Below are positions 7,873 through 27,864 of a stretch of DNA of 42,902 nucleotides, in pieces. The stretch's first letter is position 1; every line of letters begins with the position of its first letter. The position numbers and the translations under genes were made by a program. The notes beneath the pieces are model-generated. The model was not told the DNA's origin. It did no database searches and was given only the letters and a program-made list of their open reading frames with translations. The stretch is from Saprospiraceae bacterium (GTDB lineage: Bacteria; Bacteroidota; Bacteroidia; Chitinophagales; Saprospiraceae). Where the stretch lies: NCBI GenBank assembly GCA_022841745.1, contig JALHQW010000061.1, forward strand, positions 1,292 through 44,193, written 5' to 3'.

Positions 7873-7899
7873 GCTAAGCAAGCAATGTTTAATAATAAC

Positions 7900-7940
7900 T
7901 TCTGGGGGTTGTGACATCGAAACTACCACAACCCCCAGAA
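7900..7940. terminator. Convergent terminator hairpin
   Basis: A perfect 14-bp inverted repeat, TTCTGGGGGTTGTG and its complement, around a 13-nt loop. It lies between the stops of the kelch gene (plus) and the fucosidase gene (minus) and probably serves both. The T-tracts after it are short and interrupted on both strands. Confidence 0.75.
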
Positions 7941-7949
7941 CTTGTTAAA

Positions 7950-9555: not shown

Positions 9556-12500
9556 ATGAGTTTCAGCCTAACAGAAGCCGCCGAATTGGCACTGCACCAT
9601 TATCAACTCCAAGCCACTGCCAAGCATTTGCCCGGCGAGATTGACCTGAATTTTTTATTGCAAACTCCTGATGGTCAAAAATTTACGCTAAAAATTGCAC
9701 ACCCCGACACGCTGTTTGGCTATCTCGAATTCCAAAATGCCCTCATGCAGCGACTCTCGGCAGCGGGCCTCGGCTTGGAGATTCCAAAGGTCGTGAAGAC
9801 CACAATTGGCGAAGAAATCACACCCATTGCCGCTCCCGATGGCAGCCAGCGGTTCATGCGCCTGCTCACATGGGTAGAGGGCCGCTGCTTCGCCGAGGCG
9901 AACCCACATACCGAGCAATTAATGGAGGCCGTCGGTGAAATGTGCGGCAAGCTCAGCCGGGCACTCCACGGCTTCGACCACCCAGCGGCGCATCGCTTCA
10001 TCAAATGGGACTGCTCCCAAGCCGCTTGGACAGGCGAGCACCTCGATAAAATCGGCGACCCGGATAAGCGCTCGCTGGCTCAGCATTTCCTCTATTTTTT
10101 TGAAAAAAACGCCTTGCCCCTGCTGCCCTCGCTGCGCCAAAGCGTATGCTACAACGACGCCAACGACTACAACATCCTCGTCAGTCACGATGCCGAAAAC
10201 CCCACCGTGCCAGGCGTGATTGACTTTGGCGATGCCGTTTACACACAGACAATCAACGAGTTAGCCATCCTTTGCGCCTACGGCGCAATGCTCAAGCCCG
10301 ACCCGCTTGCCGCTATTTTTTGCTTCGCAAAAGGCTACCACCCCCAATGGTCACTGACAGAAGCAGAGGCAGAAGCGCTGTTCCCGCTTCTCATTGGGCG
10401 ACTGCTCATCAGCGTCACTTGTTCCGCAATGAACATGGCCGAGCACCCCGACAACGAGTACCTCCAAATCAGCGACCAACCCGCTTGGGATTTGCTCCAC
10501 AAATTGCGAAGCATACCGCCCTCGCTCGTACATGCCGTGGTGCGCCACGCCTGCGGGTGGGAGCCTTGTCCGAAAAATGCGAGGTTCATGCAATGGGCAA
10601 CGAACCGTCCAACAAAGTCAGGCGGTGACTTGAAGTCACCGCCTGACTTATTCCCCAACCTCCAAAACGCCACTTGGCTCGACCTCAGCGTTGGCAGCCC
10701 CGACCTCGGCACCTACGCCGACATCGAGGACGCCGAAAAACTCTACCGGCGCATCGTACACTGGAACCCCAGTTCCGGTGTCGGTTATTCCGGAACTGGG
10801 GTTCCGTTGTACGGTCGCTATGACGAAGTCCGCCCCTTCTACACCACCGACGCCTACGCCGTGGAGGGCAACGACGGCCCTGAATGGCGGACTGTTCACA
10901 TCGGGTTGGACGTGTTTTTACCGCCTGGCACGCCAGTCCATGCACCATTGGATGGCATCGTCCACAGTTTTCAGGACAATGCCAACGAACGAGACTACGG
11001 CCCCACCATTATTTTGGAACACCATACGATTGCGGATTGGGGATTGCGGATTGCGGATTCAGCAGACCCCCAATCCTTTGTCATTCCCGAAGGGAACCTA
11101 AATCCGCAATCCGAGATAATTTTTTACACTCTTTACGGTCACCTCAGCCGCAAGTCATTAGCGGGTTTGGCCGTTGGCCAACAGGTAAAAGCAGGTGAGG
11201 CTTTCTGCGAAATCGGGCCGATGCCGGAGAACGGCAACTGGCCGCCGCACCTGCATTTTCAGGTCATGCTTGACATGATGGGATGGGAGGGCGACTTCCT
11301 TGGGGTGGTCTTCCCTCGTTGGCGGGAGGTGTGGAAAAGCATCTGCCCCGACCCATGGCTGTTGCTGACCGGACAGCCTTCGCCGCCACCGCCAGCTAGT
11401 TTGGCTGCTTCGCAAATACTCGACTTCCGCCGGGAGCATTTGGGAAAAAACCTCAGTGTTTCCTACACAAAGCCGCTGAACATGCAGCGGGGCTGGCGGC
11501 AGTACCTGTTCGACGACACGGGGCGGCGCTACCTCGATACGGTGAACAATGTGGCGCATGTAGGGCACGAGCACCCAAGGGTGGTGCGGGCCGGGCAGCG
11601 TCAGATGGCCGTGCTAAACACCAATACCCGCTACCTGCACGAGAACATCGTGCGGTTTTCGGAGGAGATGCTGGACACGTTCCCAAAGGAGCTCAGCGTG
11701 GCCTTCATCGTGAACAGCGGCAGCGAGGCCAATGAACTGGCCATGCGTTTGGCGAAGAATTTTACTCAACAAAAGGATATGCTAGTGGTGGAGGTCGGCT
11801 ACCACGGCAATACGCAGGGCTGCGTTGACATCAGTTCCTACAAGTTCGAGGGGCCGGGCGGAAAGGGCGCGCCACCGCACACCCATGTTGTGCCGATACC
11901 CGATGCTTACCGGGGCATTTATCGAGGAAATACGCTGGAAACGGGCTTGAAGTACGCCGCCCATTTAGGCGAAGCCGCTAAAAAAGTACAAGCCGAGGGA
12001 CGGGGCGTGGCGGCCTTCATCTGCGAGTCGGTCATCAGCTGCGGGGGACAGGTGACACTGCCGCCGGGCTATTTGGCGGCAGCTGCGCAACAGGTGCGAG
12101 CGGCGGGCGGCCTGCTCATCAGCGACGAGGTGCAGACGGGCTGCGGGCGGCACGGGGCGCATTTCTGGGCGTTCGAGGAGCACGGTGTGGTGCCGGACAT
12201 TGTGACAGTGGGCAAGCCCATCGGCAATGGCCATCCGCTCGGCGTGGTGGTCACGACGCCTGCCATCGCTGAAGCTTTTGCCAACGGCATGGAGTATTTC
12301 AACACCTTTGGGGGCAATCCGGTGTCCTGCGCCATTGGAAGGGAAGTGCTTCGGGTCATCAAAGACGAGGGCTTGCAGCAAAATGCCTTAGAAGCGGGGG
12401 CATATTTGACGGCTGCTTTGCGGGATTTGGCGGGCCGCTTCCCTGTCATCGGCGACGTGCGGGGGCCAGGGCTTTTTCTGGGATTTGAATTGGTGGACGA

Positions 12501-12699
12501 TCCCGTGACACTGGCCCCTTCTGAACGGAAGGCAACCTATCTGTCAAATAGAATGCGGGAGCTTGGTGTGCTGATGAGCACGGATGGGCCATTCCACAAC
12601 GTGCTGAAAATCAAGCCGCCCATCGTTTTTGGTAAAAAGGATGCGGATTTCCTGCTCGGCATGTTGGAGCGGGTGATGCGGGAGGGCATGATGCGGTAG
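9556..12699 (+). CDS. Fusion: APH-type kinase / M23 peptidase fold / class III aminotransferase-like phospho-lyase
   Basis: A 1047-residue three-domain protein. Residues 1-340 are an aminoglycoside-phosphotransferase/hydroxylysine-kinase-like kinase with catalytic loop CYNDANDYNIL (Asp201, Asn206) and metal site IDFGD (Asp223). Residues 420-600 are an M23/LytM fold with its zinc ligands intact: HIGLD (His448, Asp452) and HLHF (His565, His567). Residues 636-1047 are a class III PLP enzyme with ISDEVQTGCGR (Asp857) and GKPIGNGHP (Schiff-base Lys887). Similar kinase-lyase fusions are known relatives of hydroxylysine kinase (AGPHD1) and the AGXT2L phospho-lyases, so phosphorylation of an amino alcohol followed by phosphate elimination is inferred. 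Substrate and the role of the M23 part are unknown. Three palindromic repeats are embedded in frame. Monocistronic. Confidence 0.88.
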   Translation: MSFSLTEAAELALHHYQLQATAKHLPGEIDLNFLLQTPDGQKFTLKIAHPDTLFGYLEFQNALMQRLSAAGLGLEIPKVVKTTIGEEITPIAAPDGSQRFMRLLTWVEGRCFAEANPHTEQLMEAVGEMCGKLSRALHGFDHPAAHRFIKWDCSQAAWTGEHLDKIGDPDKRSLAQHFLYFFEKNALPLLPSLRQSVCYNDANDYNILVSHDAENPTVPGVIDFGDAVYTQTINELAILCAYGAMLKPDPLAAIFCFAKGYHPQWSLTEAEAEALFPLLIGRLLISVTCSAMNMAEHPDNEYLQISDQPAWDLLHKLRSIPPSLVHAVVRHACGWEPCPKNARFMQWATNRPTKSGGDLKSPPDLFPNLQNATWLDLSVGSPDLGTYADIEDAEKLYRRIVHWNPSSGVGYSGTGVPLYGRYDEVRPFYTTDAYAVEGNDGPEWRTVHIGLDVFLPPGTPVHAPLDGIVHSFQDNANERDYGPTIILEHHTIADWGLRIADSADPQSFVIPEGNLNPQSEIIFYTLYGHLSRKSLAGLAVGQQVKAGEAFCEIGPMPENGNWPPHLHFQVMLDMMGWEGDFLGVVFPRWREVWKSICPDPWLLLTGQPSPPPPASLAASQILDFRREHLGKNLSVSYTKPLNMQRGWRQYLFDDTGRRYLDTVNNVAHVGHEHPRVVRAGQRQMAVLNTNTRYLHENIVRFSEEMLDTFPKELSVAFIVNSGSEANELAMRLAKNFTQQKDMLVVEVGYHGNTQGCVDISSYKFEGPGGKGAPPHTHVVPIPDAYRGIYRGNTLETGLKYAAHLGEAAKKVQAEGRGVAAFICESVISCGGQVTLPPGYLAAAAQQVRAAGGLLISDEVQTGCGRHGAHFWAFEEHGVVPDIVTVGKPIGNGHPLGVVVTTPAIAEAFANGMEYFNTFGGNPVSCAIGREVLRVIKDEGLQQNALEAGAYLTAALRDLAGRFPVIGDVRGPGLFLGFELVDDPVTLAPSERKATYLSNRMRELGVLMSTDGPFHNVLKIKPPIVFGKKDADFLLGMLERVMREGMMR
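10615..10649. repeat. Perfect 17-bp palindrome inside the fusion gene (insert 1)
   Basis: AAGTCAGGCGGTGACTT, one G, then its exact reverse complement. It encodes residues about 354-365 (KSGGDLKSPPD), in the linker after the kinase domain. Because it is self-complementary, the opposite strand encodes almost the same peptide. Confidence 0.9.
10755..10813. repeat. Second palindrome inside the fusion gene (insert 2)
   Basis: The core arms GGAACCCCAGTTCCGG (10763-10778) and its exact complement (10790-10805) flank an 11-nt loop. After two unpaired positions, CGTACA/TGTACG adds six more pairs. It encodes about residues 400-419 (NPSSGVGYSGTGVP), in the linker just before the M23 domain. Confidence 0.9.
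11028..11114. repeat. Heptamer tract and inverted partner inside the M23 domain (insert 3)
   Basis: 4.6 copies of the heptamer GATTGCG (11028-11059) are matched by two inverted copies, AATCCGC/AATCCGA, at 11101-11114; 13 bp pair perfectly (11047-11059 with 11101-11113). Between them lies TGTCATTCCCGAAGGGAACC, a relative of the palindrome at 164-252. The insert encodes about residues 491-520, starting IADWGLRIADS and ending NLNPQSE, between two conserved M23 strands (TIILEHHT and FYTLYGHLS), where family members normally have only a short turn. Confidence 0.85.
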
Positions 12700-27639: not shown

Positions 27640-27673
27640 TTTTTGTTATAGCCGCAGAAGAGGGATAGTTGGA

Positions 27674-27864
27674 TTTTGCTGCGCAAAATGAGTTTTTTTT
27701 TGACGCTGAAAGACGCAGATTCATTATGATGGATTATGTTTTGCGCAGCAAATACAAACTAATGAATCATATAAAATCAGCGTCTCTCTGCGTCGAAAAA
27801 CATTTTTGCGCAGCAAAAACAAACCTATTTAATCATAAATAATCAGCGTCTTTCAGCGTCGAAA
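27674..27864. repeat. Clustered mixed-orientation repeats upstream of galK
   Basis: Three copies of a ~38-bp unit (core GACGCTGAAAGACGCTGATT): one forward at about 27701-27738 and two reversed at about 27760-27797 and 27826-27864. Each is preceded by a copy of the palindromic 15-mer TTTTGCGCAGCAAAA or its complement (27674-27688, 27739-27752, 27804-27818). The forward copy can pair with either reversed copy, giving alternative hairpins. The cluster ends 8 bp before the galK start and must be in its leader or promoter. Confidence 0.85.

What the first reader, a model, noticed from the sequence alone, without database searches (positions are those of the whole stretch)
10615..11114. Three different palindromic repeat elements inserted in frame in one enzyme gene
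Seen directly: a perfect 17-bp-arm palindrome (10615-10649), a 16-bp-arm palindrome with outer extension (10755-10813) and a heptamer/inverted-heptamer block (11028-11114), all in the open frame of the APH-M23-aminotransferase fusion. Two lie in the linker, one between conserved strands of the M23 domain. All catalytic residues remain. This resembles the Rickettsia palindromic elements known to enter coding sequence, but the sequences are different and three unrelated types share one gene. It suggests that repeat spread creates new protein segments in this lineage, with the linker of this protein acting as a tolerant landing site.
Basis: partly seen in the sequence, partly recalled or inferred. 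Interest (0 to 1): 0.75.

Follow-up and report, generated by a model that had tools for sequence, protein, structure and literature searches.

The report
Repeat DNA invading bacterial enzyme genes
In one group of environmental bacteria, several kinds of short repeated DNA have landed inside intact genes, including ones needed for life, and are read through as extra stretches of protein; one enzyme gene carries three of them.

Summary
Three palindromic blocks lie in frame in a 1047-aa enzyme and are its only insertions longer than one residue against 29 homologues, 28 of which reach the sites. The two nearest orthologues that reach the sites lack them. AlphaFold confidence is low at all three.

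All three are multi-copy in this 8.43-Mb Saprospiraceae genome: E1, a 35-bp palindrome (33 places); E2, a REP-like doublet whose arrays surround a RAYT-type transposase gene; E3, (GATTGCG)n arrays, here holding a fourth repeat. Other copies lie in frame in dnaE, leuS, pheT, mutY, mutS, hypF, gatA and hsdR. Of 56 exact heptamer clusters, 32 lie in ORFs of at least 300 aa, nearly always read as RNPQSAI rather than DCGLRIA (24:2; 12:0 in a second species). Some sites are shared with that species, others are not.

Best reading: lineage-specific repeats enter coding DNA freely; selection keeps in-frame, stop-free, tolerable copies. Intragenic REPs and Rickettsia palindromic elements are known, so this is a new variant of a known kind. 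What moves E1 and E3 is unknown.

The parts
9556..12699 (+). Host gene: APH - M23 - class III aminotransferase fusion, 1047 aa
   Evidence: Pfam APH aa 27-260, Peptidase_M23 best stretch aa 523-571, Aminotran_3 aa 640-1040
10615..10649 (.). E1, perfect 35-bp palindrome, read as KSGGDLKSPPDL (aa 354-365), between the APH and M23 parts
   Evidence: 33 places in the genome; insert columns aa 357-362 = 10624-10641
10755..10813 (.). E2, REP-like inverted doublet with GTAC at both outer ends, read as VHWNPSSGVGYSGTGVPLY, just before the M23 strands
   Evidence: arm family; insert columns aa 413-418 = 10792-10809
11028..11114 (.). E3, heptamer array with inverted partner, in the turn between two M23 strands
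   Evidence: insert columns aa 492-517 = 11029-11106; predicted strands 482-492 and 520-528 on either side
11028..11059 (+). GATTGCG-type heptamer array within E3
11077..11099 (+). E4, a fourth repeat (TTTGTCATTCCCGAAGGGAACCT) within E3, read as FVIPEGN plus neighbours
   Evidence: 26 hits at <=4 mismatches in 494 kb of own-genome stretches; 5 of 19 rows have clear heptamer units alongside

Best explanation
Several unrelated families of short repeats have multiplied in this Saprospiraceae lineage and enter coding DNA without being strongly kept out of it. Copies that break a gene are lost; copies that keep the frame, hold no stop in that frame and fall in a linker or loop survive and are translated. 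The enzyme in the window has collected three, each probably a flexible loop without a function of its own. E2 was most likely moved by the RAYT-type HUH transposase whose gene lies among E2 arrays in the same genome. What moves E1 and the heptamer arrays is unknown; capture during DNA repair or template switching, or mobilisation in trans, are candidates. Shown: multi-copy status, absence from homologues, kept frame, the same families in many other genes, shared and unshared sites in two species, orientation bias inside genes. Inferred: translation of the segments, mobilisation of E2, lack of function, the mover of E1 and E3.
For: Insertions coincide with the repeats: aa 357-362, 413-418, 492-517; absent from L133 and L134. 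Multi-copy. Y1_Tnp gene inside an E2 array. In frame in Pfam-supported ORFs: E1 at 8 of 21 places including the window; E3: 32 of 56 exact clusters in ORFs >=300 aa, in 27 ORFs of which 25 have a Pfam family, while 64% of sampled positions lie in such ORFs. Insert seen against solved homologues in LeuRS, DnaE, PheT and MutY. Shared sites with UBA6168 in 6 of 8 gene pairs compared, and unshared copies. Orientation in ORFs >=300 aa 24 RNPQSAI: 2 DCGLRIA: 6 both, p=1e-5; 12:0:5 in UBA6168. Low model confidence at the three segments.
Against: E1's linker and the E3 turn vary in length among homologues (L008 has 14 and L006 has several extra residues in the same M23 turn). E1 and E2 give smaller net gains than their own length, and in GatA, gamma-GT and a PMT-like gene there is little or no gain, so simple insertion is not the whole story. 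No E1 or E3 copy was seen within the fetched flanks of any of the 9 Y1_Tnp genes. E2 lies mostly outside genes (clear in-gene cases: window, HsdR, GatA, of 21 places). Low pLDDT is expected wherever there are no aligned relatives.
Confidence: 0.86

Rival explanations
1. The inserted peptides are useful and kept for a function, for example as spacers or interaction sites, or the hairpins tune translation.
For: Several inserts are shared between two species at 69-96% protein identity and still recognisable; orientation is strongly biased to one polar peptide.
Against: The same peptides sit in unrelated proteins at unrelated places; E2 and E3 were found in 1 of 90 family genomes, E1 in 4 of 296, so the homologues work without them; sites differ between species.
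Confidence: 0.08
2. The orientation bias and the in-gene copies come from a strand-specific insertion mechanism tied to transcription, not from selection on the peptide.
For: A 24:2 and 12:0 bias would also follow from such a mechanism; no control on transcribed but untranslated DNA was made.
Against: Clusters with both orientations occur inside genes (6 of 32 and 5 of 17); RNPQSAI is the more polar of the two peptides, as selection on the protein would favour (inference).
Confidence: 0.2
3. The repeats are an assembly or binning artefact.
For: The genome is a draft of 178 contigs and one E2 array contains a run of N.
Against: Separately named MAGs carry copies at the same sites: UBA6168 in mutS and five other genes, Prado044 in hypF; the frames stay open and the host genes have Pfam families.
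Confidence: 0.02

Closest known systems
Intragenic GTAG/CGTC REPs (PMC3733652; passages, section 15, and part 1 of 2 of section 17 read)
   Same: Short palindromes inside open frames, many in DNA synthesis and repair genes and some tRNA synthetases; two insertions in one gene; suggested to lie in linkers or loops.
   Different: Here several unrelated families, one a heptamer array, three in one gene; the E2 foot is mostly GTAC, not GTAG; sites are compared with orthologues and between two species.
Rickettsia palindromic elements (PMC10969869, passages read)
   Same: Repeats that enter many unrelated genes in frame and add peptides.
   Different: RPEs are described there as about 150 bp with a conserved encoded peptide; these are 35-87 bp, of other sequence, in a large free-living-type Bacteroidota genome.
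RAYT/TnpAREP subclass 2.4 with REPs inside its own gene (PMC6006769; passages, sections 13 and 23 read)
   Same: Bacteroidetes among the hosts, NHVH and YIxNNP motifs, frame-keeping insertions, inverted dimers.
   Different: Described there inside tnpAREP genes; feet GT[AG]G. Here insertion is across housekeeping genes and the foot is mostly GTAC. Subclass was judged by motif only.
TAACTGA direct repeats of Beggiatoaceae (PMC4679880; listing and start of abstract only)
   Same: A 7-nt unit repeated in short arrays at many places of a genome.
   Different: Title says intergenic; here over half of the exact clusters lie in long ORFs, often with inverted partner arrays.
Enterobacterial small mobile sequences found intragenically (PMC2759123; listing only)
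   Same: Small non-autonomous repeats found inside genes.
   Different: Units of 103-168 bp according to the abstract start; other bacteria, other sequences.

Membership tests
REP mobilised by RAYT (for E2) | Multi-copy short hairpin, often in inverted pairs | tested here: met
REP mobilised by RAYT (for E2) | GT[AG]G tetranucleotide at the foot of the hairpin | tested here: not met
   GTAC in 48, GTAG in 9, GTAT in 4, GTAA in 4, other in 2 of 67 copies; a conserved GTA foot, but canonical in a minority. So E2 is called REP-like, not filed as a canonical REP.
REP mobilised by RAYT (for E2) | RAYT gene flanked by copies | tested here: met
   Y1_Tnp at C24:91598-91735 with E2 copies at 91039-92498; NHVH and YILNNP read by eye from the sequence
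REP mobilised by RAYT (for E2) | Binding and cleavage by the transposase | not testable with these tools
   Needs the purified protein
REP mobilised by RAYT (for E1 and E3) | RAYT gene flanked by copies | tested here: not met
   No E1 or E3 copy in the 9 Y1_Tnp loci L038-L046
Rickettsia palindromic element | Sequence kinship with RPE families | not tested
   No RPE sequence was compared; the likeness is in behaviour only
Rickettsia palindromic element | In-frame insertion in many unrelated genes | tested here: met
MITE | Target-site duplication at an empty site | tested here: inconclusive
   The nearest homologues compared at DNA level are too diverged (dS about 3)

The most novel reading that the evidence does not exclude
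In this genus several unrelated repeat families act as a continuing source of ready-made peptide segments for essential proteins: copies enter replication, repair, translation and metabolic genes, are fixed and inherited across species, and are filtered by selection on the encoded peptide (or by a strand-specific insertion mechanism), so that a few stock peptides such as RNPQSAI and KSGGDLKSPPD become loops in many proteins.
Probability: 0.35. Interest if true: 0.8.

Novelty: new variant of a known kind. Interest (0 to 1): 0.64.

Why it matters
It is a natural, genome-wide insertion experiment: defined short sequences have entered genes for essential enzymes, insert-free relatives are at hand, and two species show shared and unshared sites. 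This makes it testable how often repeat spread creates new protein segments and how far selection acts on the peptide itself. It also warns that predicted proteins in these genomes hold repeat-derived residues.

Tried and rejected
E2 as a unique palindrome: suggested, overturned by the arm search.

Ordinary length variation: rejected for E3 (26 aa, absent from the 28 homologues and 2 nearer orthologues that reach the site), although that turn does vary (L006, L008). Less sharp for E1, whose linker is variable and where the net gain is only 4-6 residues.

Six-frame openness of GATTGCG arrays as a special adaptation: about 50% of all heptamers give arrays free of stops in six frames, so it is permissive, not remarkable.

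UvrA (L111) is not counted as a strong case: the array is at aa 12-43 and may lie before the true start. The cyclase (L078, aa 10-24) is N-terminal too. The PKD protein (L068) has half motifs only at regular places in a modular protein. L085 (a half motif in an unscanned 1666-aa ORF) and L086 (no hit in the stricter scan) were not counted as in-gene E2.

Counts: the 56 exact heptamer clusters leave out two further exact sites (C27:16971 in L057, C38:17444 in L084), and sites with one mismatch were not fetched apart from those lying near. The UBA6168 sample is 21 of the 28 exact clusters listed. ORFs, not predicted genes, were used; the 64% background counts both strands and stretches centred on arrays.

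Distribution: the 90 genomes were about one per genus and did not include UBA6168, which is rich in E3. Same-genus G061 has no match for any of the three. The single E2 arm in G301 has a control hit in the same genome, so it is no evidence of the family there.

Full report
Setting. The window lies in contig C61 of an 8.43-Mb draft of 178 contigs, G+C 52% in the stretches sampled. All seven named contigs with an exact E1 core are Saprospiraceae or Lewinellaceae MAGs (records of the window's own genome may be left out there). UBA6168 (G217 and G302 give the same matches) is marked same genus.

Observation. ORF 9556-12699 encodes 1047 aa with APH, Peptidase_M23 and Aminotran_3 families. Against 29 homologues (L014 does not reach the sites) the protein has four insert runs: aa 357-362, 413-418, 492-517 and a single residue at 615; the first three are the three palindromes. 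Two nearer orthologues, L133 (G300, 77% over aa 1-787) and L134 (G299, 82% over aa 520-1047, 68% over aa 5-490), lack all three; the window protein gains +6, +9, +26 aa over L133 and +4, +9, +26 over L134. A third, L135 (84% over aa 2-307), ends with its contig before the sites. Residues recalled as catalytic (M23 H448, D452, H565, H567; APH D201, N206, D223; PLP lysine K887) are invariant in the 28-sequence alignment. dN is 0.18 and 0.22 against L009 and L013 with saturated dS, consistent with purifying selection.

Structure. AlphaFold: mean pLDDT 86.8, pTM 0.88. Of six segments under pLDDT 50, four lie in the elements (354-364; 406-414; 496-503 and 505-517); the other two are 765-770 and 911-919. 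E3 fills the turn between strands 482-492 and 520-528. Residues without aligned relatives are expected to score low, so this supports loops but does not prove disorder.

The elements. E1: 33 places at <=3 mismatches, 7 exact, control 0; tandem arrays occur. E2: the arm has 33+36 hits, control 9+12, many in inverted pairs with a GTA foot: GTAC 48, GTAG 9, GTAT 4, GTAA 4, other 2 of 67. One of nine Y1_Tnp hits lies at C24 inside an E2 array with copies on both sides. None of the nine loci holds E1 or E3. E3: 99+71 hits, control 0, some arrays facing an inverted array. Within the window's E3 lies a fourth repeat, E4, next to clear heptamer units in 5 of 19 other rows.

Other genes. E1 lies in Pfam-supported ORFs at 8 of 21 places: the window gene, gamma-GT, an Aminotran_4 enzyme, HypF, an FGGY kinase, MutS (after the last Pfam domain), a FAD-oxidase/Fer4 protein and an ABC transporter. 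It is read as KSGGDLKSPPD or SQAVTSSHRLT; the third frame has stops. E2: window gene, HsdR and GatA, with a PKD protein and a cyclase uncertain, of 21 places. E3: 32 of 56 exact clusters lie in ORFs >=300 aa, 27 ORFs, 25 with a Pfam family; 64% of sampled positions lie in such ORFs, so heptamers are not strongly kept out of coding DNA. The other 24 clusters lie elsewhere.

Solved homologues. LeuRS has about 9 more residues in its editing domain than 1h3n. In DnaE 84 residues stand where 3e0d has 35. PheT has about 13 more than 3pco. In MutY 64 residues stand where 3g0q has 6. GatA and gamma-GT show no net gain at the element; against UBA6168, E1 in the FAD-oxidase gives +4 and the heptamers of a PMT-like gene +1. 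So some elements replace rather than add.

Orientation. In ORFs >=300 aa, 24 clusters are read only as RNPQSAI, 2 only as DCGLRIA, 6 both ways (p=1e-5). In UBA6168, 17 of 21 clusters lie in such ORFs: 12, 0 and 5. The samples share some sites, so they are not independent. I read this as selection on the translated peptide; strand-specific insertion is not excluded.

Evolution. E1: 4 of 296 family genomes (34 copies here, 1 or 2 in the others). E2 and E3: 1 of 90, the window's own. Among six named genomes with E1, heptamers abound in G301 (Prado044, 108+94) and G302 (UBA6168, 41+62), with 1+1 in G303 and none in G298-G300. Of eight own/UBA6168 pairs, six share a site (A2M-like, LptD-like, RecB-like, FAD-oxidase, glycosyltransferase; mutS for E1); a second A2M-like copy, the FAD-oxidase E1 and the PMT-like heptamers are unshared; one pair (L153/L087, 40% identity) was not orthologous. 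The single hypF copy is also in Prado044. In 5 of the 7 named contigs E1 lies in an ORF of at least 150 aa, among them FGGY kinases (L032, L033) and HemD (L037).

Known or new. Intragenic REPs, many in replication and repair genes and some in tRNA synthetases, with double insertions in one gene, were described in 2013 (PMC3733652). RPEs are reviewed in PMC10969869 (passages). REPs inside tnpAREP genes were reported in 2018 (PMC6006769). Searches pairing Saprospiraceae with palindromic or REP terms gave 0 papers; heptamer searches gave one paper on intergenic repeats of Beggiatoaceae (listing) and none. The library lacks most subscription papers. So: a new variant of a known kind, whose new parts are several unrelated families, heptamer arrays in coding DNA, three in one gene, and the peptide-orientation bias.

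Noticed in passing
window 11473-12675: The aminotransferase part of the fusion is closest by fold to human O-phosphoethanolamine phospho-lyase (6tor, 48% identity over the aligned part), so the fusion may act on a phosphorylated amine or hydroxylysine; APH plus M23 plus phospho-lyase in one chain is odd.
   Followed up: no
L042:2703-2867 (contig C35): Copies related to E4 lie near another Y1_Tnp gene, so E4 may be the repeat of that second RAYT-type gene.
   Followed up: partly
L122:2168-5845 (-), RecB/UvrD-like ORF: About 100 residues of PQSTVGSPKLAVHS-like repeats present here and absent from the UBA6168 orthologue: a further short tandem family growing inside a gene.
   Followed up: no
L053:1928-4693 (+), hypF: E1 forms a 78-nt (26-aa) tandem array between the zinc finger and Sua5 parts of HypF, in the SQAVTSSHRLT frame, plus one single copy further on.
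   Followed up: partly
L057 (own FAD-oxidase) and L157 (UBA6168 A2M-like ORF): The string TDVNLRFRNPQSAIG occurs in two unrelated proteins; TDVNLRF may mark a further repeat that travels with heptamers.
   Followed up: no
L087, L111, L122: A repeat like GGAACTTGTCCCGACACCTCGGGA lies in or beside heptamer arrays (5 hits at <=4 mismatches in 494 kb, one of them in L071).
   Followed up: no
window 7893-7947 and 27666-27761: Two further long inverted repeats (21 nt, 90%; 23 nt, 87%) outside the long ORFs around them, not examined for other copies.
   Followed up: no
L032, L033, L054: E1 sits in FGGY-type kinases of three genomes, apparently not at one and the same place.
   Followed up: no
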